Under the pieces are notes generated by a model. That model searched no databases. It was not told the origin of the DNA and was given only the letters and a program-made list of their open reading frames with translations. A stretch of 25,144 nucleotides of DNA, taken from IMG/VR virus record IMGVR_UViG_3300028795_000021, positions 1-25,144 of that record. One strand, given 5' to 3'. Source of the DNA: a virus. The position numbers and the translations under genes were made by a program. Position 1 is the stretch's first letter, and each line of letters opens with the position of its first letter. Positions 2,770-21,355 of the stretch are shown one piece after another.

Positions 2770-3978
2770 ATGAATCACGTAATAAACGAAGACGGCGCTC
2801 GCCCTATTAAGATTTGGACTACTGAAGTTGAGGAGTCGGCGCTCAAGCAGCTTAAAAACCTCGCTCGCCTGCCCTTCATAGCCGGGAACGGCGTGGCCTG
2901 CATGCCGAACGTGCACGCCGGCATCGGATCGACAGTCGGAACGGTCATCGCTACAGACAAGGCCATCATTCCGGCCGCGATTGGAGTTGATATCGGCTGC
3001 GGCATGAACGCGGTTCGCTTGTCGCTGAAGGCGTCGGACCTCCCGGAAAGCCTGAAAGATATTCGCAATCAGATCGAGCGCGACGTGCCGCTTGGCGCTG
3101 GTGGCCGCCACCGTAACTCCTATGTTCCTCCCGGTCATGGCGCGGGCCAGCAGCACGCCCTCTGGAATGAATACGCCCGCATCAAGCCATTCGGCGAGGA
3201 CGACCATCTGAGGGCTTTCGAGCGCGCGTGGTTTCAGCTTGGCACGCTCGGATCAGGCAATCACTTCATTGAGATTTGCCTTGATGAGAATGACGACGTT
3301 TGGATCATGATGCACAGCGGCTCACGTGGCACGGGTAACGAGATTGGCCGTCGCCACATTGAGAAGGCGAAGCAGAACATGGAACGGTATTTCGTCTCGC
3401 TTCCCGATGCAGACTTGGCGTATATCCCTGAAGAAACCGAGGATTTCAATAAGTACGTCGAGGCCGTGAAGTGGGCGCAGGATTGGGCGCTTGAAAACCG
3501 CCGCGTAATGATGGACGCGACGATTGCAGCCGTCCGTCGCCATATCGAGAAGCCCTTCACGATTACGCATGAGGCCGTGAATTGCCACCACAACTATGTC
3601 GAGCGTGAGAACCACTTCGGCCGCAATTTGTGGGTCACGCGCAAGGGCGCTATCCGTGCACGTAAGGGCGACTTGGGCATCATCCCGGGCAGCATGGGAG
3701 CGCGCAGCTTCATCGTGAGCGGCAAGGGTAATCCGGAATCGTACTGCTCATGCTCGCACGGCGCGGGCCGCAAGATGAGCCGTACGCAGGCTGCAAAGAC
3801 CTTCTCAGTGGACGATCTGAAGGCGCAGACGGCGGGCGTGGAGTGCCGCAAGGATGCTGGCGTGATTGATGAGGTGCCGGGCGCGTACAAGGACATCGAT
3901 GAGGTCATGGCGAATCAGACCGACCTGGTGGAGATCGTGCACACGCTGAAGCAAGTTTTGTGCGTTAAGGGGAACTAG
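2770..3978 (+). CDS. rtcB: RtcB-type RNA ligase
   Basis: This 402-residue protein is close to the length of E. coli RtcB (408) and spans the whole family fold. RtcB joins RNA 2',3'-cyclic-phosphate or 3'-phosphate ends to 5'-OH ends using GTP and Mn2+. Metal-ligand and catalytic landmarks are present: GVDIGCG (D74, C77), GSGNHF (H165), MMHSGSRG (H182), CHHNY (H274), and the guanylylated histidine in CSCSHGAGRKMSR (H330). It should therefore be active. No rtcA or rtcR is adjacent; it sits in a phage operon of small unknowns. Repair of tRNAs or rRNA cut by host anticodon-nuclease defences is a reasonable but unproven role. Confidence 0.95.
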   Translation: MNHVINEDGARPIKIWTTEVEESALKQLKNLARLPFIAGNGVACMPNVHAGIGSTVGTVIATDKAIIPAAIGVDIGCGMNAVRLSLKASDLPESLKDIRNQIERDVPLGAGGRHRNSYVPPGHGAGQQHALWNEYARIKPFGEDDHLRAFERAWFQLGTLGSGNHFIEICLDENDDVWIMMHSGSRGTGNEIGRRHIEKAKQNMERYFVSLPDADLAYIPEETEDFNKYVEAVKWAQDWALENRRVMMDATIAAVRRHIEKPFTITHEAVNCHHNYVERENHFGRNLWVTRKGAIRARKGDLGIIPGSMGARSFIVSGKGNPESYCSCSHGAGRKMSRTQAAKTFSVDDLKAQTAGVECRKDAGVIDEVPGAYKDIDEVMANQTDLVEIVHTLKQVLCVKGN

Positions 3979-5004: not shown

Positions 5005-5360
5005 TCGCAAAGTTTATCGAAAGGTTGTTCGGCAAGGCCATGAACGACGCCTTCCCCGAATTGGCCCCGCTGAATTTCCGCTTCGTGTGGGGCCCGGCGC
5101 TCAGCCCACTCAAGACTGAACTGATCGGGCTGAAGCGCAACCATGCGCGCGGCGAGGTGGAGCTTGAATATATGTATGCGGACTGGCAGCACGGGACGAC
5201 GTACTGCTTCAGCGAAGCGCCGCGCAGGTTGACGCCGGAAATTGTGAAGTTGAACCGCCTGCAGGCTCGCCGTGCACAGCGCATGCTGGACATTACCGCG
5301 AAGCTGGAGCGTGACAGCAAAGTGAAGGGACCGAAACCAATTAACCCGGGAGCCGATTGA
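5001..5360 (+). CDS. hypothetical protein, TTG start
   Basis: This 119-residue protein starts at TTG (5001), where TTGA overlaps the previous stop. A very strong AGGAGG lies about 8 bases upstream, which decides this rare start. The N-terminal part resembles a small beta-rich domain with many aromatic residues (FRFVWGPALSPL, LEYMYADW). Residues about 75-110 form a basic helix (LNRLQARRAQRMLDITAKLE). No family was recognised. The next gene also starts with a TTG overlapping its stop. Confidence 0.72.
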   Translation: MIAKFIERLFGKAMNDAFPELAPLNFRFVWGPALSPLKTELIGLKRNHARGEVELEYMYADWQHGTTYCFSEAPRRLTPEIVKLNRLQARRAQRMLDITAKLERDSKVKGPKPINPGAD

Positions 5361-5560
5361 ACCTCCAGCCCACCGCAGAAGAACTGCGCGCGCTTCGCCG
5401 AGTAGCAGGCATCAGCCAGTCGAAGGCCGCATCGCTCGTCCACCTGAGCAACGGCATTCGCTGGTACGAATATGAAGCGGGAAAACGTCACATTGACAAA
5501 GCCCGCTTCGAACTCTTTCTGATCAAAACCGGGCTTCATCCGGCCATAAAACCAACATGA
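5357..5560 (+). CDS. small XRE-like helix-turn-helix protein, TTG start
   Basis: This 67-residue protein begins at TTG overlapping the previous stop (TTGA), with GGGAG 5-6 bases upstream. Residues 8-55 match a single Cro/C1-type helix-turn-helix: LRALRRVAGISQSKAASLVH forms helices 1-3, then WYEYEAGKRHID corresponds to the usual W-x2-[YW]E-x-G segment, followed by a last helix. It could bind DNA as a small repressor or Cro-like factor and is a candidate partner for the repeated operator-like sites; that link is untested. Its stop overlaps the start of the final small gene. Confidence 0.75.
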   Translation: MNLQPTAEELRALRRVAGISQSKAASLVHLSNGIRWYEYEAGKRHIDKARFELFLIKTGLHPAIKPT

Positions 5561-5691
5561 AAAACATCTGGACACAGTGCTTCCTCGCGTTCCTTCATGA
5601 CCGATCAAAGTATCTACCCGGCCATCCGTTCTACCCGAAAGACTATGAAACGTTCCTGGCTGATTGGTGCAACGATTTTTTCAATGACTAG
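5557..5691 (+). CDS. 44-residue hypothetical protein at the operon end
   Basis: This short gene has its ATG overlapping the preceding stop (ATGA, 5557-5560) and ends at TAG 5689-5691. The product is rich in aromatics and acidic at the end (FYPKDYETFLADWCNDFFND). Coupling to the upstream gene is the main support. Its stop sits in CTAG, whose other strand is the stop of the terminase gene, so the two operons overlap by 3 bases tail to tail with no room for a terminator. No function can be read. Confidence 0.6.
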   Translation: MKNIWTQCFLAFLHDRSKYLPGHPFYPKDYETFLADWCNDFFND

Positions 5692-8294
5692 ACCTGCTCG
5701 AACATAACGCAGGCGTGCGCATCGGGCATTACGATCGCCTGCAGTTCGTTGCAGAACTTGCGATCGAAGTCGAAGTTCGAGCAAGACTTGCAACGATCCT
5801 CCGTGATTTCCTCGCGCTCGCGAAGAACCTTGTTCAGTGTGTGGTTCTGAGCCATAGCATCTCCAATAACTACCTTCGTACTCTCGTCGCTTGTGTCCGG
5901 GAACAGGAATGCAGTTCCGCCGTGAGCGCGGGCCCAAGCGACGTTCATCAGCATGAAGGCGTAAGAGAAGTGAGGATCGATACCGACCTTCACCACCTTG
6001 CGCCGCATTTTTCGTTCTTCAGCGTCCATTTCAACAATGAGCGCCGTTCGCGTGAAGTGCTTAAACACGCGATCGAGGATGGACGCGAGCGACTTCTCAC
6101 CGCGAATCCCGTTATCGCCGTCGTCCGAGAGCATTTGCAGCAGCCCCTTCGGATCGGGGAAGACCGTAACGTGCGCCGTGATGCGCGCGAGCGCTACCTG
6201 CATGCTCTTGTATTGATCCAGCGTGACCGTGTAGCGGTCTTGCGCCTCTTCGTCGCTCTTGCGCTCTGCCTTCGATGGAACAGCGTCGCCCCAGCGCAGT
6301 GACGCGTCCTTAATGACCGTGTAGCTCGCAAGGAATACGATTCCCTTGTGGCGATTCGCGAAGCGGTGAGCGTCGTTATAGTTCGGCAGCGACTCGCACA
6401 CGCAGACCTTGACGCCGAATTTCTCAATCAGTTCGGAACACCTGGCGAAAGGATCGTCGCTGTAAATCTCCTCTGCGTGGATCAGCGCCATATGGCCCGT
6501 CGGCAGGCGCTCGCAAATGAGGGCGACGTTGAACTTACCCATCTGGTCGATACCCATGAACGTGCCTTTTGCACGATCCTTCCACTGCACGCCCAGCCGC
6601 CTGCCCTCCTCCACGCACTCGGCGAGGATCTCCAGGTTGATCGGGATTTGCGTCGGGTCCGCGTACGGCTTGCCGAGCTTCCGGTTAAAGAAGTTCCGCA
6701 TGTCCGCCGCGTTGTGGTAAGCCTCAATCATTTCCCGGGCGGAAATGGTCGGCGACAGTGTTTGAGGGAAGTGAACCGAGCGATTGACCGCTTCGGGGTT
6801 CTTCGCAATCCACTCGCCGCGCTGTGTGTCGTCAATCCAGCCTTCGCATTCCTTGCACTTGTAACGGTATTCGCCCGTGAGCCCGGCCTCACGCTCGCGC
6901 TCATTCACCCGCGGCGCGGTCGGATCGTACCCAATGCAGGCCGGGAAGTTTTCATCGAGCACCTGCTTCGCGAGGCAGTGCGGGCACTCGGTATGAAACT
7001 GGAACTGCTTCCCCTTTTTGAACCACCAGTGGATATCGCCGTCGGGCAGGTTCGCCGTGGAGCCCATCAGCGTGTACTTCAGACGCGAGGCGGACATACG
7101 CTCGCGGACCTTCTCCATATCCGCGATCACCATTTCCTGCACTTCATCGAACGAGACAACGTCCATCGGGTTCGATTCTGTGGCCGTCTTGCCAGAGGTC
7201 CAGAGAAAGTGATATCGCGACTCGCCGATGTTCCGGGTCAGCACGTTACCGTCGCCGGAAATGCCTGACTCGGCGAGACCTTCCTTCATCAGCCGGCGAA
7301 CGGCCGGAATGGTCCGGACGATCTGCATGAAGCGGTTCGTGGACTTCCCGGACGCCAGCATTTGCGATGGCATGAACATGCCGATCTTCGATGCCGGGAA
7401 GCGCAGGCCAAGGTAGATCATGGCGAGCATTTCCATGACCGTGAACCCTACCTGGGTGCACTTCATGATGATATCGATCCGCTGGTACGCGTCCTTGACC
7501 GTGTGCGGAATCAGGTCATAGATGAAGGCCATGGCCGGGCGGTCATCGAGGCGGAATGGATACCCGTCCACCTTCAGACCTTCGGCACTCAGGCGCTCGC
7601 ACCACTGGCGGAAGGTCTCGTCCGGGCCCACGATCATCTGGGACGGCGTCAGGTCGATTGGCGCATCCACGAACTCGCCAAGACGCTCCTGGCGGAACAC
7701 GTCCAGCGCCATGGTGGAGCGGTCATATTCGACGGCTGCCTGATCGGCGTACTCATTGTCCGTAGCTTTAAGCTGGAAGGTCGCCCAATCCTCCGCAGCG
7801 CCCCTGTAGAGGGCTGCGAACGGGCCGCGCATGCCAACGGGCTTGCCGAAGTACCAAACCCGCCCATGGCGGTTCAGGTGGATGCTTTCATGGACTTCGT
7901 GCACCCCGTCGATTTTTTGAGCGTCATCCACCACGATAAGGTGGAACTCGTCGTAAATCGGCTTAGGGTCATCTCGCGGGATGAACGTGATCGAGCCGCC
8001 ATTCACCAAATCCCAGCGCATGTTATCGAGGCGGCCAGTGGCGTTCGTGATGAGAGGCCGGATCGTTCGCAGTAGTGCGGACTTGGCCTTCTCCACGTCG
8101 TCGCCAGTCGGCAGAACGAGCGCCGTCTTGAAGCCGTGCAGCGCACCGAAATGGGATATGAGCAGCGTAACGAGCGCAAGCGTCGTCTTGCCTGATTCGT
8201 TGCCGCCATGGACAACGTTAAAGCGCGCAGGGCTGCCGAATGCAACCGACTGCGCGCCAAAGAGAAGCGGGAGCCGAATCTCATGCTGCTGCAC
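5688..8294 (-). CDS. terL: terminase large subunit with two tandem ATPase modules
   Basis: An 868-residue DNA-packaging motor. Residues 1-212 look like a terminase ATPase: Walker A GGNESGKTT (31-39), Walker B HLIVVDD (118-124), and the usual module end TDNEYADQ...VFRQERLGEF. Residues 225-570 resemble a lambda gpA-type ATPase: K278-CTQVGFT aligns with the lambda KSARVGYS loop, Walker B is VVSFDE (D383, E384), and there are zinc-ribbon pairs C437/C440 and C480/C483. Residues 575-790 are the RNase H-like nuclease with acidic residues D583, E634 and D773. The tail adds C835, C838, C848 and C862. Typical large terminases are 450-700 residues with one ATPase. It starts with GTG behind GAGGGCG. Confidence 0.88.
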   Translation of the reverse strand: MQQHEIRLPLLFGAQSVAFGSPARFNVVHGGNESGKTTLALVTLLISHFGALHGFKTALVLPTGDDVEKAKSALLRTIRPLITNATGRLDNMRWDLVNGGSITFIPRDDPKPIYDEFHLIVVDDAQKIDGVHEVHESIHLNRHGRVWYFGKPVGMRGPFAALYRGAAEDWATFQLKATDNEYADQAAVEYDRSTMALDVFRQERLGEFVDAPIDLTPSQMIVGPDETFRQWCERLSAEGLKVDGYPFRLDDRPAMAFIYDLIPHTVKDAYQRIDIIMKCTQVGFTVMEMLAMIYLGLRFPASKIGMFMPSQMLASGKSTNRFMQIVRTIPAVRRLMKEGLAESGISGDGNVLTRNIGESRYHFLWTSGKTATESNPMDVVSFDEVQEMVIADMEKVRERMSASRLKYTLMGSTANLPDGDIHWWFKKGKQFQFHTECPHCLAKQVLDENFPACIGYDPTAPRVNEREREAGLTGEYRYKCKECEGWIDDTQRGEWIAKNPEAVNRSVHFPQTLSPTISAREMIEAYHNAADMRNFFNRKLGKPYADPTQIPINLEILAECVEEGRRLGVQWKDRAKGTFMGIDQMGKFNVALICERLPTGHMALIHAEEIYSDDPFARCSELIEKFGVKVCVCESLPNYNDAHRFANRHKGIVFLASYTVIKDASLRWGDAVPSKAERKSDEEAQDRYTVTLDQYKSMQVALARITAHVTVFPDPKGLLQMLSDDGDNGIRGEKSLASILDRVFKHFTRTALIVEMDAEERKMRRKVVKVGIDPHFSYAFMLMNVAWARAHGGTAFLFPDTSDESTKVVIGDAMAQNHTLNKVLREREEITEDRCKSCSNFDFDRKFCNELQAIVMPDAHACVMFEQV

Positions 8295-8295
8295 T

Positions 8296-8346
8296 GTGAC
8301 GCCCTCAAAAATCGTTTATGTACTTACGATTTATGTTGGCGTCACG
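8296..8346 (-). promoter_or_regulatory. nested hairpin in the terminase leader
   Basis: GTGACGCC (8296-8303) pairs perfectly with GGCGTCAC (8338-8345). Inside it AAATCGT (8309-8315) pairs with ACGATTT (8326-8332). In the minus-strand transcript the 3' arm covers part of the GAGGGCG ribosome-binding site and ends one base before the GTG start (8294). This suggests translational control of terminase. The outer arm is the CGTGACGC element shared with four other leaders. Confidence 0.5.
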
Positions 8347-8724: not shown

Positions 8725-10038
8725 TTAGAACTGGCGACCGGCTGACACTACTGCGCCGAAGTCACCACGGCTATTCGTAGTGATCGAAGCCTTCATGACC
8801 CACTTGTCATCCTGCGAGACGCGCGAGTAGCCAGCAGCAAAGCCCGTCGCGCCGTGATAGGTCGATCCAGCGACTGAAACCATCGACTTGCCCGGGCCGG
8901 TCGGCTGCGGCAAGCCAGCCACCGCGAGAGCCGAAGCAACGCCGCCGTACATATCCGAGCGCAACTTGCTGATATCCGACTCGGCTTGGTTGAACTGCTG
9001 ATCCGTATAAGCGTTCGCCTGCCCAAGCGTAATAGCCGCCGACTGGTTCGTGTAGGCGTTGGCCGAAGACATGGTCGCAGCGTTATCCACAACGCGCTGG
9101 TTGGCTTCGGCGACGATTGCCGATGCATCGCTCGCCTCTTGCGCTTGCAAGCCAGCCTCTGCGGTTTTAGCCCGCGTCGCTTCGCTTGACACCCCTGCGC
9201 TCAGCGTCGCCTCTGCCGCCGTGGCGCGAGACGCCTCCTTCGTCACCGCGACCGTGCCCGCTGCTGCCGCCGCACCCGCTGCCGTAGCTGCGTTTCCTGC
9301 TGCTGCCGCTGCTGTTCCTGCTGCCGTGGCCGTGGCCTTGGCCGAAGCTGCTGCCGCCGCCGCAGCCGTCGCCGTCGCGTTAGCGGTCACTGCCGTGCTG
9401 TTAGCTGCTGCAGCCGCCGCTCCTGATTGAGCCGCGCTGGTGATGGCTTTCTGCGCATCCGTCTCGGCCTGTGCTGCGGCTTGCTGCACCGTGTAAAGCT
9501 GCGAGCCGTTCACCGCGTCAGTGCTGGTCGCATTGACGTTGCCAGCCGTCACATTGATGATTTGACGCGTTACACCGTTGCCGCCGACCGAGACAACCAT
9601 CGCTTGGCCGCCATCCGTCGAGCCGTAGCCGAGCGCCACCGATCCCAAGCCGGTCGCTGACGTGAATGAGCCCAGCGCGAGAGCTACTTCACCCGTCGCG
9701 TTTGCCTTGTAGCCTACCGCAGTGCGGTAAGAGTCTTGCGAGTCATCGGACGCGCCGAGTGGGCTAGGTGCGCCAGTGTTGGCATATGTGCCAATCGCCG
9801 TATCGCCGCGACCCTGAGCCTGCGAGGCGTAGCCGAATGCTGCAGCATACTCACCAGCGATATTCAGACGCGCCGTGCCGCCAGCAAGCGGGCCATTCGG
9901 ACCCCAACCCGTATCGCCTCCACCGACTGCGACGCCCTCCTGATTGGCCGATGAATTATCGCCGAGCGTGACCGATGATTGTGCGTATGCCGAGACTGCG
10001 AACATTGCGACTGCGAAAGCGATAAGAGTTTTTTTCAT
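8725..10038 (-). CDS. YadA-like trimeric autotransporter adhesin
   Basis: This 437-residue protein has the full order of a trimeric autotransporter. Residues 1-20 are a Sec signal peptide (MKKTLIAFAVAMFAVSAYAQ). Residues about 60-145 are YadA-head beta-roll repeats (AFGYASQAQG, TAVGYKANATG, ALGSFTSATG, ALGYGS). A head-neck connector follows (STDAVNGSQLYTV, 172-184), then a very Ala-rich coiled-coil stalk (about 185-355) and a C-terminal YadA anchor barrel (about 356-437) ending in Phe. It should sit in the host outer membrane as a trimer and promote adhesion or aggregation. It has its own promoter (10110-10138) and terminator, so it looks like an independently expressed cargo gene. A ribosome-binding site AGGAAAA precedes the ATG. 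Confidence 0.93.
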   Translation of the reverse strand: MKKTLIAFAVAMFAVSAYAQSSVTLGDNSSANQEGVAVGGGDTGWGPNGPLAGGTARLNIAGEYAAAFGYASQAQGRGDTAIGTYANTGAPSPLGASDDSQDSYRTAVGYKANATGEVALALGSFTSATGLGSVALGYGSTDGGQAMVVSVGGNGVTRQIINVTAGNVNATSTDAVNGSQLYTVQQAAAQAETDAQKAITSAAQSGAAAAAANSTAVTANATATAAAAAAASAKATATAAGTAAAAAGNAATAAGAAAAAGTVAVTKEASRATAAEATLSAGVSSEATRAKTAEAGLQAQEASDASAIVAEANQRVVDNAATMSSANAYTNQSAAITLGQANAYTDQQFNQAESDISKLRSDMYGGVASALAVAGLPQPTGPGKSMVSVAGSTYHGATGFAAGYSRVSQDDKWVMKASITTNSRGDFGAVVSAGRQF

Positions 10039-13099: not shown

Positions 13100-13669
13100 T
13101 TACAGAGGGCGCATGACGGTCCCGAACTGGCGGAATGCGTCGCTGAAGGACTGCGAATAGCTCAGTTGATCAAAATAAAGGAATGCCTGCCCGCGCGTGT
13201 TGCCGGTTACCTTCTTGCCATCGGCGTTATAGAACTGAATGCGATGGTCCGTGAAGCAGATCGCGCGAGCCTGCGCCGCCAGGGCGCGAAACATCCGGGT
13301 CTCGGTCGCGTTGTTCACCAGAACGATGCCTCGCTCAAAGCGCTCGTACGCGAGGGCCTCCAGAAAGCGCGTGGCGGCGTCCAGAGCGGGCTTGCCTGAG
13401 TACGGCGGGTTCATCCAGCAGGAACGCGTCTTGGGCCACGATACGCCGCGCGTGGGGTTCGGATTATCGAGCGTGCAATACTGGTCCGCGCGCACGAGCC
13501 TCTGCGCATCGTCGCTGCTGTACGGGTCAAACCCGATGCCATCTAGGACCTCACGAGCGGCCTCAATGTACTGGGGCGGGGTGAACCACGCATCGGAATC
13601 AAGCCGCTTGACGCCCGGCGAGCTTCCCACATAGCCGAGCGCGGCCGGGTTATCGGCGCGGCGCATCAT
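13100..13669 (-). CDS. phage DNA N6-adenine methyltransferase (Dam-like)
   Basis: This 189-residue protein matches the phage DNA N-6-adenine-methyltransferase family: DAWFTPPQYIEAAREVL (26-42), GFDPYSSDDAQ (46-56), CWMNPPYSG (84-92; NPPY is the catalytic motif IV), then GIVLVNNATETRMFRAL and RIQFYNADGK. It should transfer a methyl group from SAM to N6 of adenine in DNA; the recognition site cannot be read. Length is typical. Its ATG overlaps the stop of the Nudix-kinase gene (ATGA), so it is translationally coupled to that system. Protection from host restriction is a common role, but the coupling is notable. Confidence 0.9.
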   Translation of the reverse strand: MMRRADNPAALGYVGSSPGVKRLDSDAWFTPPQYIEAAREVLDGIGFDPYSSDDAQRLVRADQYCTLDNPNPTRGVSWPKTRSCWMNPPYSGKPALDAATRFLEALAYERFERGIVLVNNATETRMFRALAAQARAICFTDHRIQFYNADGKKVTGNTRGQAFLYFDQLSYSQSFSDAFRQFGTVMRPL

Positions 13670-15180
13670 TTGAGCTTGAGCAGGTCGGCGCGACGGGCGA
13701 TCAGCTTGCGGGAGAGTTCCGCCTTCTGTTCCGGGTTGCCGGGGCCAAAGTCCATGACAAGGGACTTGATCTTGTCGGGGCTCACGCTCGCGACCTTTTT
13801 CACGCCGTTGAGCAGTTGCTTATGCGAGATTCCGCCGAATACAGATGACGCCTGCGCGTTCGTGCCGTCGGTCAGCGTGTCGAGTTCGCCCACCTTGTCG
13901 CCGAAGAGCTTGCCCTTGGGCTCGCCCTGCGCGCGGAACACCAGCGAGCCGCCCACATCCACGCGCACCGCATCGCCCTTGTCGTCTTCGAGCAGGTTGT
14001 CATGCGCCAGCCCGACGACATCCCAGTTAGCGAGCCACGCATCCACCGCGAAGCCATCCATGACGCTCGCGTTGCCTTCGCCGAATTCCCGGAGCTTCTG
14101 CAGGCCCGGGACGATCTTCGACGCAATGGCCGTACGATCGCCAACGGTGACTTCCTTCAGTTCCGGGACCTTCACGCCGGCCGCTTCGTACAGCTTGCCC
14201 GCGAGGATCTCGTTGCGTGCGATAGCGGTCGATTTCGGGACCTTCACATACCACTCTTGCCCGTCCGGGTCCTTGAAAAATCCGCCCGGGTTCGAACCAC
14301 GTTGCTGGCCGACCTTCTTCCAGTCGTCCACCGACTCGCGCAACGGGCCGACCGGCGCCAGCCCGGCCAACGTGGCGAGCGTGCGATCGTACTGGCGGTT
14401 CGCCGCGGCGTGAACCTTGCCTGGCGGAACGAGCAAGATCGCCTGCGATTCCCAGCCGCAATCGGTTGGCGTGCCACCTACGCGCTTGGCCGTGTAGTAG
14501 CGAGTCATCGTCTGCCCGCGCGCCACGTCGCCAATTAAGCCCGTGATTTCCACCTGCAGGCCGGACTCCTCAAACGCCTCTTTGATGGCCGTCGCCTGCA
14601 GGGAAATGCCGTCATCGGCATGGCCTTTTGGGAACGTCGTGGCGTAGCCAGCGAAGCCGTTGGACGGCTTGACCATCCACACGCGACCGTCCGGCTCCTG
14701 AATGAAGACGCCGGCAGCCGGTTCCTTGCCCTTCAGATCCATCTCGGGTTCGTCCAGGTCGTGCATTTGCCCTGGCACGTGATCCCAGCCTTCGATCGTC
14801 TTCGGATGATCGGTCCAAGGCGCAAGCGCGACGCCATTCAACGAGGCGGGCGCGTGGCCGCCTGGCGTGAATGTGGCCGTCTCATGAGGATCGTTCCACG
14901 TATCCGTGGCGGATTGCTGCGAGGGGTATTTGACGACTACGTGCTTGCCTTCGTCGTCGCGCTTGGGATGGTTGATTGCGCCTTCCGGCATGCCCCAAGC
15001 GGGGTGAAGCGCATCCTTTCCGGACGGCTTCGCGGCGAGCTTCTCGGCGGACTGCTTACTGCCAGTCAGCGAGTTGTGCCATTGGACTTTTTTGATGACC
15101 TTAGTGTCATGCGCTTGGACGACAGTGCCGTCTTTGCGCGTGAAGGTCTTTACGTGAGCCTTGCTGAAGAGGAGAAGCAT
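13666..15180 (-). CDS. Nudix hydrolase fused to a HipA/PI-kinase-like domain
   Basis: This 504-residue protein has three parts. Residues 1-30 carry TFTRKDGTVVQAHD, shared with the 1409-residue neighbour. Residues about 155-255 are a Nudix domain, cleaving a nucleoside diphosphate linked to X: its box runs from G186 to L208 with K200-E-A-F-E204-E205-S-G. The usual first Glu is Ile192 and Arg is Lys, so activity may be altered. Residues about 293-470 are kinase-like: K313 in WYVKVPK, D380...N385-W-D387, D394-N395, and VDVGG (D408). This follows the HipA/PI-kinase catalytic order and closely matches the neighbour's domain. ATG 15180 lies inside a hairpin with AAGGCG as ribosome-binding site. Confidence 0.82.
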   Translation of the reverse strand: MLLLFSKAHVKTFTRKDGTVVQAHDTKVIKKVQWHNSLTGSKQSAEKLAAKPSGKDALHPAWGMPEGAINHPKRDDEGKHVVVKYPSQQSATDTWNDPHETATFTPGGHAPASLNGVALAPWTDHPKTIEGWDHVPGQMHDLDEPEMDLKGKEPAAGVFIQEPDGRVWMVKPSNGFAGYATTFPKGHADDGISLQATAIKEAFEESGLQVEITGLIGDVARGQTMTRYYTAKRVGGTPTDCGWESQAILLVPPGKVHAAANRQYDRTLATLAGLAPVGPLRESVDDWKKVGQQRGSNPGGFFKDPDGQEWYVKVPKSTAIARNEILAGKLYEAAGVKVPELKEVTVGDRTAIASKIVPGLQKLREFGEGNASVMDGFAVDAWLANWDVVGLAHDNLLEDDKGDAVRVDVGGSLVFRAQGEPKGKLFGDKVGELDTLTDGTNAQASSVFGGISHKQLLNGVKKVASVSPDKIKSLVMDFGPGNPEQKAELSRKLIARRADLLKLK

Positions 15181-15717: not shown

Positions 15718-18700
15718 TTACGCCTTTTTCTTCATCAGGTTATCAACATAGGTCGGGTCGGGCGGCAACATCAGCAGTTCGAGTTCGAAGCGCTGCCCGT
15801 TGGAATTCCCGTGCTCCACGTCAGCGACCATTTTACGTGACATAACCATGAAACGCGCGCCCGGTAAAGTGGTTACTTCCATTTCGCTCTTAAAACTTCC
15901 GGATGCGAACGAATTCAGGGCCTTCGCGCCTTCGGCGTAGCGAATGGTGATGCGGTCCTTGCCGAAGTGCTTGGTCGCCGTGTCATGGTACGAGGTACAC
16001 ATCGAGCCCGGGTTCTGAAAAACCAGCCCTTCCGGCGCGTCCATGAATTGCTTGACCATTTCCGGCGCGAAGCTAATCCACTTGCTGATCGTCGTGCCCG
16101 CTTCCTGCGGCGCCGCGTTTTTGTACAGGTCTGTCAGCACTTCGCGCGTCTTGTTGCCGCCGTGGTCGGTTTCCTTGCCATCGCGGTACGGGTTGTTATA
16201 CGAACCCGAACCCTGCACGCCGGAAATGAACGACTTGACGCTAGACGGCAGCTTACTGTGCGCTGCCTGAGCCGCCGCGATGGCCGCAGAGGACAGCTTT
16301 TTGACGGCCGGAATGAACTTCGCGGGCGAATCGGCCACGCCCAGCGCGATCCAGAACCCAAGCTGCTGGTTCTTCGGGGCCATCTCCGTGGTCTTGCCGA
16401 AGTCATGCGGCTTAAACGCGGCAGACAGCGACGCCAGTGTGCTCGCCGACTTCGTCTCGAACGGCCGCAATGCCTCTGGCGGGTTCGCGATCATGTCCAG
16501 GTACGACACCAGATTCGTGTGGTAGTCCTGCACGTACTTCGACGGGTGCTCGTCAATCGACTTCTTTTCGCCGATGGCCTCACCAGTCATCTTATCGACA
16601 GGCTGGAATTTGTACGCCTTCAGCGCCGTCAGGTTGCCCGACTTGGCGATATTCAGCAGTTCCTGCTCGTCGGCGATGTTGCCCTTGACGTATGCCTTCT
16701 CGCTGATCGGCTTGCCCGTGCCCTGCCAGTTCATGTAATCGTGCGGGCTCGGCAGCAGCGATGCGTCCACCGTCAGCGCGGCCGGGTTCGGCTTCACCTT
16801 CGCAGCGGCAGCCGAACCTTTCTTCGGCTTCGCGGCGTTCGGATACTGCTCGCTCATGTTGTGCTTGCGGGCGATCAGCTTTTCGGCGAGGCGCGTCTTC
16901 TCGCTTTCCGAGCCCGGGCCGAACTCCATTACCACGCCTTCGATTTCATGGTCGGGGATGTCGGCGATCTTCGCCACAGATGCCGCGATGTCCGCGGCGC
17001 TCATTTTCCCGAACACTGCGGCCGTGTTGGCGTTCTTCGACGGGTCGAGCATCGTCTTCAGTTCGATAACGTCGTCTTCGAACTTCTGCTTCTTGCCGCC
17101 CGCACCGCCGTACAGCAGCGCACCGCCTGCATCGATGCGCACAGCCGAGCCATCCTGCTTGAACAGGATGTTGTCGAAGCCCTTGCCTGCAGCCGGGTTG
17201 TTACCGACCGTGTCCCAGTTCGCCAGCCATGCGTCAGCGCCGAAGCCGGACAACAGCCCTTTCGCTTTGCCCTCCAGGAGAGCTGACTTGTTCGCCACCG
17301 CGCCGTCAACGATCTTCGACGCGAGGCCGATCTTGCCGCCCTGGTTGATGAGTTTCACTTCCGGCACTTCGACGCCAGCCAGCGCATACAGCTTCGTTGC
17401 CACCAGTTCGTTCTTCGCGACCTTCTCGCCACCGGCCGGGAACTTGACATACCACTTCTGGCCGCTCTTATCGGTGTACGTGCCGCCCGGGTTATAGCCG
17501 CCCTGCGGACCTACCTGCGTCCAGTCATCCACGGACTCCGTAGCGGCCGGCTGAGCCGTTCCCATGACCTTCTGAGCCTTGGGTACGGCCTTGGGCGCAG
17601 CAGACTCGCCACTGCCCACTGCGCCAGCGCCAATCACGGCGTCGTGCAGTTGCTTGCCGTATTGCGCGAATGCGAGCGCTGCCGGGCCGTGCGCCTGCTC
17701 AGTCGGACTCAGGGCAATAAGCCCGTTATATTTGACCTTGCCTTCCGGCGTGATCGACAAAACCTTACTGAGGCCCTCTGCGCCCTGTGTGGCCGCGACG
17801 AGGTTCATGTTTTTGATGTGGTTCTTCAGCTTGACCGAATTCTTACCGGTAATCTTTGGCACCTTCAGGCCAGCGACGATCTTCGCTGCTTCGGGCCCAG
17901 TCTTCGCGGCAGGCTCGTCACCGCCCACCTTCACCCAGTGCCCGTTCTTCAGCACGAGCATGCCGTCAGCGCCGCGCTTCGTGTCGCCTTCCTTGGGCCC
18001 AGTCGCCGCGGCGGCTGCCTTATCCGGAACCTCAACGGTGATCGTGTCCGAGTTTTGGTGGACATAGCCGTTATTCTGCTTCTCGGCAATCAGCTTCGAC
18101 TGCGCTTGGTAGGCAGCCAGTTCCGTGCTGAATTCCTTCGTGCTAACCGAGCCCTTCGAGCCGATCTTCCCGTAGTGCACGCGCATTGCATTGCCGACTA
18201 CAGAGACGCCCCAAAACTTGTTATGCCCCTCTTCGGTGTTGTGATAGAGATGCTGCGTGACGTTTTTCTTCACCATCGGGACGGCAGCCGCTGGCGCGGC
18301 CTTTCCTTCGAGATGCGCGATCGCCTCGGCTGCGTACTTCTCCAGCTTTCCGAAGTTGGTCGCGGCGGGTTGCCCCGCGCCAATCATCGTCGCTTGGTCC
18401 ATCAGCCCCTGGAGGTTGCCCGCGTTCAGTTCCTTCTCGATCTTGTCCGCAATCTGCGAGGATGTAATCGAGGAGAGTTGCGGCTTTACGGGCTTCGCGC
18501 CGGGCTCAGTCGGCTTCACGGATTCGGCGACCTTGGCTTCGAGCGTCGCGATGTGCTTCGCGGCATAGTCAGCCGTCGGGCCCATGCCTTCCTTCGTCGT
18601 GTAGGCGTGGATGTCCTTCAGCGTTTGCAGGTCACCCTCTTCGAGCGCCTTATCGGCGTCTTCCTTCAGCCCCGCATCTACGCCCTGGTGCGCAGGCATC

Positions 18701-19947
18701 GGCGTTTCGCCCTTCGCCTTTTCGCCAGTCTTCCACTCGTACAGCGCGGCGGCATAGTCCTTCAGCTTCGCCATTTCGCCATCGGCACCGGCAAGCGTCG
18801 CCATCTTTTTCAGTTCTTCGAGGAGGCCGCTTTCAGCCCACTCCGCGACGGCCTTTGCCGCCTGCTTGTAGGCGGGATCAAGGTCATCAGGAATGGCAGG
18901 CGCGGCTCCCTTGGCCTTCGGTGCGTCAGGATTTTCAGCAGGCTTAGCCTCTGCGGAAGCGGCAACCACCTTTTGCGGCTCAGCAGCGGGTTGGGGCTTG
19001 GTCTCAGCAGCAGGAACACCCTCACCTGTCAGCGCGGCGTGGCCGCCCATTTTCTGGCCCGGCGTCACCGTGTGCTTAGAGCCCATGGCGGCCAGCGCTT
19101 CGTTCGCGAGCTTCGCGGCCTGCTTGCCGTACGTGTGCGTCGGATAGCCGTGATTCAGGATCGACTTTTCATCGCCCGTAATCAGCGCGTGCGCAATCCC
19201 GTCCAGCTTCTTTTTCTGGCCGGGCGTGATGTGATGGTCGGCGGGCAGCTTTGCCTTTGCGGCTTCGATCTTGTCGATAACCGCAGCCTTTGCATCGTTC
19301 GACGCTCCGAGATCCTTGCCGGTCTGCCCCTCGGGTTCCGGCTTCGACTCAGGCGTGGGTTCATCCTTGGGCTCAGGAACGGTCTCTGCGACCTCCGGCT
19401 CCTCTTTGGCCGCAACTACCTTCGGCGGCTCGGCGGGAGCCTGCTGCGGGGCTTGCTGCTGCTTCGGATTGGCTGCCTGCCAGTCGAACCACTGCTGACC
19501 GAACGCCTCCTCCTTTCCTGCCGCCTTGAATTCCGCCTCAAACTGAGCCTGCTTAGCGACCGGCAGCGAATCGAACGCCTTCCATTCGCCAGGCGTCGGC
19601 TTCTCGCCGGCGAGGAGTTTCTTTTTCAGCGAGTTGGCGCGCGAGAGCATCGATGCCTGGCTCTGGATCGCCGTCGCCTCCTTCAGGACGTGAGCCACCT
19701 TGTGATCGTGTGGCATCGCATTGAACCAGTCCTTTTTGGACAGCTTCTTATGCGCTTCCTTTTCGGTGTAGTTGCCCTGCCCTGAGACGGCCTTATGCTC
19801 GTCGTGGTCGGTCGAGACATTGACCATGGCGTAGTGGCCTTGCACCACCTGCCCGTTGCGCTTCGTGAAGCCCGGAATCCAGACCTGTTTCTTCGTCACC
19901 GCCTTCATGAAAAGAAGGACGGGCTGCCGTGCGTGAATGTCGTTCAT
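15718..19947 (-). CDS. 1409-residue multidomain protein: repeats, WGR, kinase-like and ADP-ribosyltransferase-like domains
   Basis: I chose ATG 19947 (GGGGTG upstream); 50 codons of open frame before it cross a terminator. Reading order: N-terminal GFTKRNGQVVQGH (26-38) as in the Nudix-kinase protein; a disordered Pro/Glu stretch (150-215); three helical repeats (about 355-405, 425-472, 497-548); a WGR domain (about 566-632, FWGVSV...VHYGKIGSKG), known from PARPs and bacterial Mol regulators; a kinase-like domain (about 815-1030: WYVKFP, DAWLANWD, FDNILF, RIDAGG); and a C-terminal ADP-ribosyltransferase-like domain (about 1230-1395) with a CTSYHDTA segment at the STS position and the ExE motif SEMEVTTLPGARF (E1355, E1357). 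The first-strand Arg is not obvious. No secretion signal is seen. It is probably an effector, possibly virion-delivered. Confidence 0.78.
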   Translation of the reverse strand: MNDIHARQPVLLFMKAVTKKQVWIPGFTKRNGQVVQGHYAMVNVSTDHDEHKAVSGQGNYTEKEAHKKLSKKDWFNAMPHDHKVAHVLKEATAIQSQASMLSRANSLKKKLLAGEKPTPGEWKAFDSLPVAKQAQFEAEFKAAGKEEAFGQQWFDWQAANPKQQQAPQQAPAEPPKVVAAKEEPEVAETVPEPKDEPTPESKPEPEGQTGKDLGASNDAKAAVIDKIEAAKAKLPADHHITPGQKKKLDGIAHALITGDEKSILNHGYPTHTYGKQAAKLANEALAAMGSKHTVTPGQKMGGHAALTGEGVPAAETKPQPAAEPQKVVAASAEAKPAENPDAPKAKGAAPAIPDDLDPAYKQAAKAVAEWAESGLLEELKKMATLAGADGEMAKLKDYAAALYEWKTGEKAKGETPMPAHQGVDAGLKEDADKALEEGDLQTLKDIHAYTTKEGMGPTADYAAKHIATLEAKVAESVKPTEPGAKPVKPQLSSITSSQIADKIEKELNAGNLQGLMDQATMIGAGQPAATNFGKLEKYAAEAIAHLEGKAAPAAAVPMVKKNVTQHLYHNTEEGHNKFWGVSVVGNAMRVHYGKIGSKGSVSTKEFSTELAAYQAQSKLIAEKQNNGYVHQNSDTITVEVPDKAAAAATGPKEGDTKRGADGMLVLKNGHWVKVGGDEPAAKTGPEAAKIVAGLKVPKITGKNSVKLKNHIKNMNLVAATQGAEGLSKVLSITPEGKVKYNGLIALSPTEQAHGPAALAFAQYGKQLHDAVIGAGAVGSGESAAPKAVPKAQKVMGTAQPAATESVDDWTQVGPQGGYNPGGTYTDKSGQKWYVKFPAGGEKVAKNELVATKLYALAGVEVPEVKLINQGGKIGLASKIVDGAVANKSALLEGKAKGLLSGFGADAWLANWDTVGNNPAAGKGFDNILFKQDGSAVRIDAGGALLYGGAGGKKQKFEDDVIELKTMLDPSKNANTAAVFGKMSAADIAASVAKIADIPDHEIEGVVMEFGPGSESEKTRLAEKLIARKHNMSEQYPNAAKPKKGSAAAAKVKPNPAALTVDASLLPSPHDYMNWQGTGKPISEKAYVKGNIADEQELLNIAKSGNLTALKAYKFQPVDKMTGEAIGEKKSIDEHPSKYVQDYHTNLVSYLDMIANPPEALRPFETKSASTLASLSAAFKPHDFGKTTEMAPKNQQLGFWIALGVADSPAKFIPAVKKLSSAAIAAAQAAHSKLPSSVKSFISGVQGSGSYNNPYRDGKETDHGGNKTREVLTDLYKNAAPQEAGTTISKWISFAPEMVKQFMDAPEGLVFQNPGSMCTSYHDTATKHFGKDRITIRYAEGAKALNSFASGSFKSEMEVTTLPGARFMVMSRKMVADVEHGNSNGQRFELELLMLPPDPTYVDNLMKKKA

Positions 19948-19984
19948 GAGCACCCCATTTGAATATGGGAAGCATGGCGTCACG
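19948..19984 (-). promoter_or_regulatory. leader of the 1409-residue gene with CGTGACGC element
   Basis: CGTGACGC (19984-19977 on the minus strand) lies 28 bases before the ATG region. CCCAT/ATGGG (19968-19953 region) forms a small hairpin whose 3' side contains the GGGG of the ribosome-binding site. No clear sigma70 promoter is seen between the terminator at 20004-20028 and this start, so a different promoter class or readthrough must supply transcription. Confidence 0.35.
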
Positions 19985-20003
19985 ATCACGCGGTACAGCA
20001 ATG

Positions 20004-20028
20004 AAAAAAGCCCCGGGGTTGCCGGGGC
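20004..20028 (-). terminator. intrinsic terminator of the coiled-coil gene
   Basis: GCCCCGG (20010-20016) and CCGGGGC (20022-20028) form a perfect 7-bp stem with loop GGTTG. On the minus strand it is followed by six T (20009-20004). It lies 32 bases past the stop of the gene at 20060-21355 and separates that unit from the 1409-residue gene. Confidence 0.9.
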
Positions 20029-20059
20029 CTTGGTTACCTGATTGGTAGCTGCTAGATAA

Positions 20060-21355
20060 CTATCCGATTGCCACGTGAGCCGATACCTCATCAGCAATCA
20101 CGTCAAAGCAGGCGCGCAACGTGTCGAAGTCCTTCGTCTTTCCGAAGATCATTTGGCGACCGTTCTTAATCGCCGTCGCGAGCGTCTCTTTGCTCACCGT
20201 GAGCGGGCGTAGTTCCATGTTGCCGGGCGTGCCGACTTGGACAATCGGAGCGCTCTCGGACTTAGCATCGCTCGGCGTTTCTGGAGCGAAGTAGCTCAGA
20301 GCGCCCTCTGCGAAGTTGGCCCATTCGAAGCACGAGTTATCGCGGTTCCAAAATGCGCACTGCACGAGGTCGCCGATGTTCGTCACCGTCATCTTAGGCG
20401 CGTGGCGCATGCCCTTCAGTGCAACGGTGTCGCCCGCAGCCAGAACGTGAAAATCAGGCGGCAGTTGTGCGCGCTCGGCTTCCAGTTGATTGATGCGCTT
20501 CTCGGCTACCGCCAGATCGCGAACGTACTGCTCGTTCGCGGCGCACAGTTTCTTATTGTATTCGTCCGTGATGCGCCATGCAGACTGCTCGCGATGGAAT
20601 TCAATGATGGAAGTGCGCTGGTTTTCAATGCGATCGCGCAGTTGGCGCTCACGTGTTGCGGCTTGCGTGTCCGGATGCGCAGCGAGTGCATTCATCAGGC
20701 TCTTGACGTTGAGCGCCAGCCTCTCGTTCTCTTCCTGATAGCGCCCAATGCTCTCGCTCTGCGTTTCATTGCGGAGCGTCAGCGCCTTTATTTGCTCAAC
20801 GGCCTCGTCAAGATCGGCTTGGAGCGCCGTGACGCGCTGCTTCATATCAGCGCGCTCAACGATACGCTCTTGCTCAACGCCAGCGGCGCGCTCGCGGATG
20901 GCAACCACGGCATTGTTCGCAGCCCTCACGTCCAATTCGAGCGAGTCACGCTTGCCCTTCACGGCGTTGTAACGTTCTTCCCACGTGAGGTTTGCCGCGC
21001 GTTCGTTGTTCAGACGCGTATTCAGACGCTGATTTTCGTCAGCGAATTGCTTGTTCGCGGCACGGACCTCGCCGTCGAGACGATTCAGTTCAACATGCTC
21101 AGCAACGATTTGCTCAACGTCGCGCATGAAGTCAACCAGCGGGAACGTCGCCGCGATTATCGAGCCGCACCTGTCGAAAGAGTAGTCCTTCGTGCGGTTC
21201 TCATACGCCGCGAGATTTATTCCGACCTTCTCAACGTACGTTGCTCGCACGCCGAACGTGCCCTTCATGATGGCGTCAATCACCGCCGCGAACTGCACGT
21301 CATTCAGAAGGCGAACTTCATTCAGCACGCGGTCCAACTTTGAATTTCCTGACAT
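20060..21355 (-). CDS. coiled-coil protein with C-terminal DUF2158-like domain
   Basis: This 431-residue protein has a small helical N-terminal domain (1-75), a long coiled coil (about 80-298, heptads rich in Glu/Arg/Ala/Leu), and a compact beta domain (302-356) with FHVLAAGDTVALKG...PKMTVTNI...VQCAFWN. The last matches the DUF2158/YodC pattern of small SH3-like domains (GDxVxLKxGGPxMTV). A helical tail follows (KETLATAIKNGRQMIFGKTKDFDTLRACFDVIADEV). DUF2158 has no firm function, so its fusion to a coiled coil suggests a scaffold or regulator. It is a single-gene unit with promoter/operator at 21489-21533 and a terminator downstream. Confidence 0.78.
   Translation of the reverse strand: MSGNSKLDRVLNEVRLLNDVQFAAVIDAIMKGTFGVRATYVEKVGINLAAYENRTKDYSFDRCGSIIAATFPLVDFMRDVEQIVAEHVELNRLDGEVRAANKQFADENQRLNTRLNNERAANLTWEERYNAVKGKRDSLELDVRAANNAVVAIRERAAGVEQERIVERADMKQRVTALQADLDEAVEQIKALTLRNETQSESIGRYQEENERLALNVKSLMNALAAHPDTQAATRERQLRDRIENQRTSIIEFHREQSAWRITDEYNKKLCAANEQYVRDLAVAEKRINQLEAERAQLPPDFHVLAAGDTVALKGMRHAPKMTVTNIGDLVQCAFWNRDNSCFEWANFAEGALSYFAPETPSDAKSESAPIVQVGTPGNMELRPLTVSKETLATAIKNGRQMIFGKTKDFDTLRACFDVIADEVSAHVAIG

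What the first reader, a model, noticed from the sequence alone, without database searches (positions are those of the whole stretch)
5688..8294. Terminase with two tandem ATPase modules
Seen in sequence: residues 1-212 hold a full terminase-type ATPase (Walker A GGNESGKTT, Walker B LIVVDD, the module-end pattern TDNxYxD...VFRQERLGEF). Residues 225-570 hold a second, lambda gpA-like ATPase (K278-CTQVGFT, DVVSFDE, zinc-ribbon cysteines), followed by one nuclease. Known large terminases have one ATPase. Either a second terminase ATPase was fused to the front, or the N-terminal part plays a small-subunit-like or coupling role. Both Walker sets look intact, so both may hydrolyse ATP.
Basis: partly seen in the sequence, partly recalled or inferred. 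Interest (0 to 1): 0.85.

Follow-up and report, generated by a model that had tools for sequence, protein, structure and literature searches.

The report
Phage packaging motor with spare ATPase
In a group of roughly 90-kb phages, the protein that pumps DNA into the virus head carries at its front a second, catalytically worn-down copy of a packaging-motor domain from another motor lineage, apparently used as an exchangeable front end rather than as a second engine.

Summary
The 868-aa ORF (minus strand, 8294 to 5688) holds a complete T4/P74-26-type terminase ATPase domain (residues 1-212) in front of a complete lambda gpA-type TerL (ATPase plus nuclease). It is not an assembly join. The same order occurs in 47 dereplicated TerLs, including isolated phages.

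The two modules come from different TerL lineages; this is a fusion, not a duplication. "Both may hydrolyse ATP" is not supported. Module 1 has lost the Walker-B catalytic Glu in 47/47 (Asp/Asn/Gly), usually lacks the P-loop Arg, and has lost the Walker-A Lys in four lineages. Module 2 keeps its catalytic residues in 47/47. Module 1 is nevertheless under purifying selection and has been exchanged between TerLs several times.

My first explanation, that module 1 replaces the small subunit, failed. All 23 long dual-module records carry a TerS gene, but 10-25 kb from terL. TerLs without module 1 have a TerS gene next door and a short N-terminal arm of a type matching that TerS.

Best guess: module 1 is a non-motor front end occupying the TerS-contact position. 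The TerS-docking step is inferred. I found no description of this architecture in the literature searched.

The parts
5688..8294 (-). Dual-module terminase large subunit gene, 868 aa, GTG start
   Evidence: homologues of about 870 aa in isolate phages
8302..8306 (-). Ribosome-binding-site-like GAGGG, 7 bases upstream of GTG
   Evidence: sequence printed
7659..8294 (-). Module 1 (residues 1-212): T4/P74-26-type TerL ATPase domain, degenerate active site
8181..8207 (-). Module 1 Walker A GGNESGKTT (residues 30-38); Asn32 stands where canonical TerLs have Arg
7923..7940 (-). Module 1 Walker B LIVVDD (residues 119-124); catalytic Glu position is Asp124
7833..7850 (-). Module 1 coupling-motif region FGKPVG (residues 149-154), GTP in most canonical relatives
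7623..7658 (-). Junction between modules (residues 213-224)
6585..7622 (-). Module 2 (residues 225-570): gpA-type ATPase
7440..7463 (-). Module 2 gpA-type Walker A K278-CTQVGFT
   Evidence: K278 47/47
7143..7163 (-). Module 2 Walker B DVVSFDE, D383-E384
   Evidence: 47/47
6846..6986 (-). Zinc-ribbon cysteines C437, C440, C480, C483 in module 2
   Evidence: 47/47, 47/47, 47/47 and 43/47
5910..6584 (-). RNase H-like nuclease (residues 571-795) with D583, E634, D773
   Evidence: D583 and E634 47/47, D773 46/46 readable rows; structure
5709..5792 (-). C-terminal four-cysteine tail C835, C838, C848, C862
   Evidence: 46/46 readable rows

Best explanation
The protein is the large terminase of a roughly 90-kb tailed phage. 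Module 2 and the nuclease are a normal gpA-type motor and DNA cutter that do the packaging. Module 1 is the ATPase domain of a different, T4/P74-26-type TerL lineage, fused in front, that has lost the residues needed for hydrolysis while keeping its fold and, in most lineages, its P-loop. It stands where the relatives without module 1 carry a short N-terminal arm that differs with the type of small subunit encoded next door. The most likely job of module 1 is that of a non-motor front end: a nucleotide-binding or purely structural platform that contacts the small subunit (here encoded 10-25 kb away) and/or DNA and so couples recognition to the gpA-type motor. Shown: the architecture, the two origins, the degenerate site, purifying selection, repeated exchange, and the co-occurrence with an unlinked TerS. 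Inferred: loss of hydrolysis, docking of TerS, and any nucleotide dependence.
For: Module 1 aligns with ordinary TerLs (hhalign E 4e-34), while module 2 aligns neither with those TerLs (Prob 4.7) nor with module 1 (Prob 0.5), so this is a fusion of two lineages. Fold match to terminase ATPases. Catalytic Glu absent 47/47, Walker-A Lys lost in 4, module 2 invariant; six canonical relatives all keep Asp-Glu in Walker B and Arg in Walker A. In HK97 TerL, K60A and E154A abolish packaging and ATPase, and mutating the Walker-A Arg R56 harms both (PMC9410871). dN/dS in module 1 about 0.06-0.3 in most pairs that could be measured, also in Lys-less lineages. Swapping: L016 and L028 share 94% in module 1 but 59% in the rest; dual TerLs are rejected as one clade, p-AU 5.6e-6. 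Three head types go with three TerS arrangements: TerS-A arm with adjacent TerS-A, TerS-B arm with adjacent TerS-B, module 1 with unlinked TerS-B. TerS-B matches PHROG terminase small subunit (phrog_1206, 12 of 18 members, best E 1e-15). The N-terminus of lambda gpA binds its small subunit (own knowledge of the lambda terminase literature).
Against: No interaction between module 1 and TerS was tested. TerS-B also works, by inference, with TerLs that lack module 1 (adjacent TerS-B clade), so module 1 is not needed for TerS-B as such. Asp in place of Glu can leave weak hydrolysis, so the window's own module 1 cannot be called dead from sequence. The relative placement of the domains in the full model is uncertain (pTM 0.52). 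Only four well-supported independent contrasts link head type and TerS linkage (all four agree, sign test p 0.125).
Confidence: 0.5

Rival explanations
1. Both modules are active and form a two-tier motor, module 1 hydrolysing ATP during translocation or initiation.
For: P-loop GKTT kept in most members and the Walker-B Asp in all; high-confidence ATPase fold.
Against: Catalytic Glu missing 47/47, P-loop Arg mostly replaced, Walker-A Lys missing in 4 otherwise intact lineages; module 1 varies more than module 2 (41% against 66% mean identity).
Confidence: 0.1
2. Module 1 replaces the small terminase subunit.
For: Every TerL without module 1 and with enough upstream sequence has a TerS-like gene near its start, except the two distant Thermus outgroups; no dual TerL has one there.
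Against: A TerS-B gene is present in all 23 long dual records, 10-25 kb away, and matches PHROG terminase small subunit.
Confidence: 0.07
3. Module 1 is a structural or procapsid/portal-contacting domain, or an oligomerisation collar, with no TerS role.
For: Fold kept while catalysis is lost; N-terminal position; purifying selection.
Against: Head type goes with TerS arrangement rather than only with phage lineage; in lambda the prohead-binding domain is C-terminal in gpA (PMC4856287).
Confidence: 0.25
4. Module 1 is a shield or decoy against host sensors of terminase such as Avs, which explains its fast change and swapping.
For: Module 1 changes faster and is exchanged; Avs3 is known to bind a phage terminase (PDB 8dgc, listed).
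Against: No direct evidence; a terminase-fold decoy could equally trigger such a sensor.
Confidence: 0.04
5. Module 1 is a decaying passenger without function.
For: Degenerate active site.
Against: dN/dS well below 1 in most pairs, kept in frame in 47 lineages, repeatedly exchanged.
Confidence: 0.04

Closest known systems
Large terminase of lambda gpA type (Pfam GpA_ATPase, phrog_675); e.g. Bordetella phage PHB04 TerL
   Same: Residues 225-800: ATPase with K-x-x-Q-x-G Walker A, DE Walker B, zinc ribbon and nuclease; 44% identity to PHB04 TerL
   Different: PHB04 has a short N-terminal arm and an adjacent TerS-A gene instead of module 1
TerL ATPase domain of the T4 gp17 / P74-26 / nickie-like type (Terminase_6N)
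   Same: Module 1 fold and motif order
   Different: Canonical Arg, Glu and GTP motifs changed; followed by a whole second terminase instead of its own nuclease
Terminase of Morganella phage Mecenats66 (873 aa) and Pseudomonas phage Dolphis (PMC9503643)
   Same: Same tandem architecture; Mecenats66 was shown to package by headful from a preferred pac site
   Different: The paper reports only a GpA domain and no TerS found; the second ATPase module is not mentioned in the passages read
Terminase small subunit, PHROG family phrog_1206 (here TerS-B)
   Same: HTH protein found in all dual phages tested with a long record; adjacent to TerL in a clade without module 1
   Different: Separate gene, 10-25 kb from terL in dual phages, usually followed by a ParB-domain methyltransferase gene

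Membership tests
gpA-type terminase large subunit | GpA_ATPase domain above the curated cut-off | tested here: met
   48.8 bits against 25.6, residues 266-496
gpA-type terminase large subunit | gpA Walker A Lys and Walker B Asp-Glu | tested here: met
   K278, D383, E384 in 47/47
gpA-type terminase large subunit | C-terminal RNase H-like nuclease with acidic triad | tested here: met
   D583, E634 47/47, D773 46/46 readable rows; full-length model hits TerLs
gpA-type terminase large subunit | DNA packaging activity | not testable with these tools
   A relative (Mecenats66) packages by headful (PMC9503643)
T4/P74-26-type TerL ATPase domain (for module 1) | Homologous fold and sequence profile | tested here: met
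   hhalign 4e-34, Foldseek top 31 hits all TerL, T4 gp17 by sequence profile E 2e-4
T4/P74-26-type TerL ATPase domain (for module 1) | Intact catalytic set: P-loop Arg and Lys, Walker-B Glu | tested here: not met
   Glu 0/47; Arg mostly replaced; Lys 42 of 46
T4/P74-26-type TerL ATPase domain (for module 1) | ATP binding or hydrolysis | not testable with these tools
   Needs protein
Terminase small subunit (as a reading of module 1) | Phage lacks another TerS | tested here: not met
   TerS-B found in 23/23 long dual records
Terminase small subunit (as a reading of module 1) | HTH DNA-binding domain | tested here: not met
   Module 1 model is an ATPase fold

The most novel reading that the evidence does not exclude
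Terminases of this phage group use exchangeable N-terminal heads matched to their small subunit, and one head is a whole terminase ATPase domain that has given up hydrolysis and become a nucleotide-responsive adaptor for an unlinked TerS. That would be a packaging motor with one working and one regulatory motor domain in each subunit.
Probability: 0.35. Interest if true: 0.78.

Novelty: new variant of a known kind. Interest (0 to 1): 0.62.

Why it matters
How the small subunit hands DNA to the motor is a poorly understood step of viral DNA packaging. Here nature has repeatedly swapped the front end of one and the same motor between a short arm and a worn-down motor domain, together with a change in the linkage of the small-subunit gene. 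That gives ready-made pairs of phages for testing which part of TerL reads TerS. It also supplies candidate small subunits for phages such as Mecenats66, where none was found.

Tried and rejected
- Module 1 as a TerS replacement: strongly suggested by gene order, then overturned when the second TerS family was searched in whole records.
- Internal duplication: rejected by profile comparison.
- Assembly join, or two separate genes: rejected by independent contigs and isolates; no stand-alone module-1 gene was seen among the 36 module-1 relatives in viral contigs. L020 shows module 1 in another frame and L093 is cut at the contig end.
- PHB04's upstream gene as a split-off module 1: rejected; it is an HTH-like gene.
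- Downstream antisense small genes, including an HTH gene at 5357-5560 in the window, as a TerS: no family shared by all dual phages.
- ORF123 over the Mecenats66 pac site as TerS: no match to either TerS profile.
- L197 first looked dual: chance open frame, actually single with TerS-A.
- PDB search with the single sequence gave nothing.
- Literature searches for terminases with two ATPase domains gave nothing; the library holds only open-licence papers.

Full report
OBSERVATION. The ORF runs from 8294 to 5688 on the minus strand (868 aa, GTG start with a GAGGG ribosome-binding site). PHROG terminase-large-subunit profiles match residues 11-211 (phrog_2, 6e-14) and 93-211 (phrog_7579, 2e-8) and, separately, 227-795 (phrog_675, 6e-89); Pfam GpA_ATPase matches 266-496 above its cut-off. 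The gene is identical in four contigs from other metagenomes. The same order at about 870 aa occurs in Aeromonas phage ST4, Pseudomonas phages Touem01, Jeremy and Dolphis, Enterobacter phage phiT5282EW, Yersinia phage fHe-Yen8-01 (TerL annotated as particle-associated) and Morganella phage Mecenats66, at 37-53% identity. This excludes an assembly join.

WHAT MODULE 1 IS. Its nearest ordinary relatives are complete 407-441-aa TerLs of nickie-like Pseudomonas phages, Stenotrophomonas, Rhizobium and Halorubrum phages. Profile comparison gives E 4e-34 over 199 columns to that group, but nothing for module 2 against that group and nothing for module 1 against module 2. The module is therefore a fused domain of another TerL lineage, not a duplication. 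By sequence profile it also finds T4 gp17 (E 2e-4). Its AlphaFold model (pLDDT 91, pTM 0.89) finds 31 terminase entries first, best P74-26 ATPase bound to ADP-BeF3 (E 9e-10, TM 0.72).

CATALYTIC STATE. In 47 dereplicated dual TerLs, the residue following the Walker-B Asp of module 1 is Asp 43, Asn 2, Gly 2. The Walker-A Lys is Lys 42, Leu 3, Asn 1 (one gap). The P-loop position that is Arg in canonical TerLs is Glu in 31 and Arg in only 3. The six canonical relatives aligned all have Arg there and Glu in Walker B. Module 2 is invariant at K278, D383, E384, S412 and T413, and the nuclease at D583, E634 and D773 (one row unreadable at D773). In HK97 TerL, alanine at the Walker-A Lys or the Walker-B Glu abolishes packaging and ATPase activity, and mutation of the equivalent Arg harms both, whereas the coupling-motif Thr mutation has only a small effect (PMC9410871). 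I therefore put weight on the Glu and Lys losses and little on the coupling motif. Asp instead of Glu, as in the window, does not by itself prove inactivity.

SELECTION AND EXCHANGE. Pairwise dN/dS in module 1 is about 0.06-0.3 in nearly all pairs measured (L005/L059 is higher at about 0.7; one pair, L003/L004, is saturated at dS), including two pairs of lineages without the Walker-A Lys. Module 1 is more variable than module 2 (mean identity 41% against 66%). L016 and L028 have 94% identical modules 1 but 59% identical remainders, with dS 0.28 against 1.1. On a tree of the gpA part (106 sequences, quick IQ-TREE, LG+G4) the dual state needs six changes, at least four on well-supported branches, and one clade is rejected (p-AU 5.6e-6). 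The front end has thus been exchanged repeatedly.

SMALL SUBUNIT. In TerLs without module 1, the gene immediately upstream is an HTH protein of one of two families that do not match each other, TerS-A (alignment A3) or TerS-B (A5), in a few cases with one gene in between. The exceptions are one truncated locus (L147) and the two distant Thermus outgroups. No dual TerL has TerS-A at that place, and none has it elsewhere in 35 records searched (one hit at E 0.01 with stop codons inside was discounted). This first suggested that module 1 replaces TerS. Searching TerS-B in whole records overturned that: it is present in 23 of 23 long dual records and in 8 of 11 further ones (the three misses are 44-65-kb fragments; two of the further ones repeat phages already counted), but in none of 20 TerS-A records. 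In dual phages it lies 10-25 kb upstream of terL (for example Mecenats66 ORF44 at 18319-18978, with terL at 29033), usually followed by a ParB-domain methyltransferase gene. TerS-B members match PHROG terminase small subunit (12 of 18, best 1e-15). The window ends before the place where it would be expected (in the closest relative, L014, it lies about 25 kb away).

HEADS. The stretch before the conserved TFREWC motif falls into three types: a TerS-A arm (LE..TGF...IP..MTFREWC), a TerS-B arm (AAAELERRRRQAEI...IPEDMTFREWC), and module 1 plus a short linker. The N-terminus of lambda gpA is the part that binds the small subunit (own knowledge). The simplest reading is that module 1 sits in the TerS-contact position. 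The association rests on four well-supported independent contrasts, all agreeing (sign test p 0.125), so it is suggestive, not proven. Part of it may reflect replacement of the upstream DNA together with the 5' end of terL.

KNOWN OR NEW. Mecenats66 was shown to package by headful from a preferred pac site; its authors found only a GpA domain and no TerS (PMC9503643). Three searches of the open-licence library found no description of a terminase with two ATPase modules. I call it a new variant of a known kind: a gpA-type TerL with a degenerate TerL ATPase domain as its N-terminal head.

LIMITS. Sampling is by degenerate-pattern scans capped at 80 loci each; the tree is a quick one and L006 is a long branch; domain placement in the full model is uncertain (pTM 0.52); TerS assignments rest on profile names, gene position and HTH matches; no protein was tested.

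Noticed in passing
window 2770-3978 (+): Phage-encoded RtcB RNA ligase (Pfam E 4e-129), on the strand opposite to the packaging genes.
   Followed up: partly
window 8725-10038 (-): Complete small YadA-type trimeric autotransporter (signal-like N-terminus, head repeats, stalk, membrane anchor) encoded just upstream of terL in a phage; a closely similar protein is at the same place in L013.
   Followed up: partly
window 15718-20097 (-) and 13666-15180 (-): Two large neighbouring proteins (1459 aa with a WGR domain, 504 aa with a NUDIX domain) share a similar stretch (SVDDW..VG..GG.NPGG...D..GQ.WYVK...), suggesting a duplicated domain. ADP-ribosyltransferases are annotated at a comparable place in related phages.
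   Followed up: no
dual phages, e.g. OL614104.1 18319-20351, PP179325.1 6278-8322, OR620963.1 70230-72291: TerS-B is followed by a ParB-N/DNA methyltransferase gene in most dual phages, and L179 has the order TerS-B, methyltransferase, terL: a possible link of packaging-site recognition with DNA methylation.
   Followed up: partly
L209 4320-4979 (OL614104.1 ORF44): Candidate for the small terminase subunit that the authors of the Mecenats66 paper could not find; it does not overlap the mapped pac site, which lies at the end of ORF123.
   Followed up: partly
residues 835-862 of the TerL (window 5709-5792, -): Four invariant cysteines form a conserved C-terminal tail in dual TerLs, with matching cysteines in the single-module alignment, possibly a zinc knuckle at the procapsid-contacting end.
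   Followed up: no
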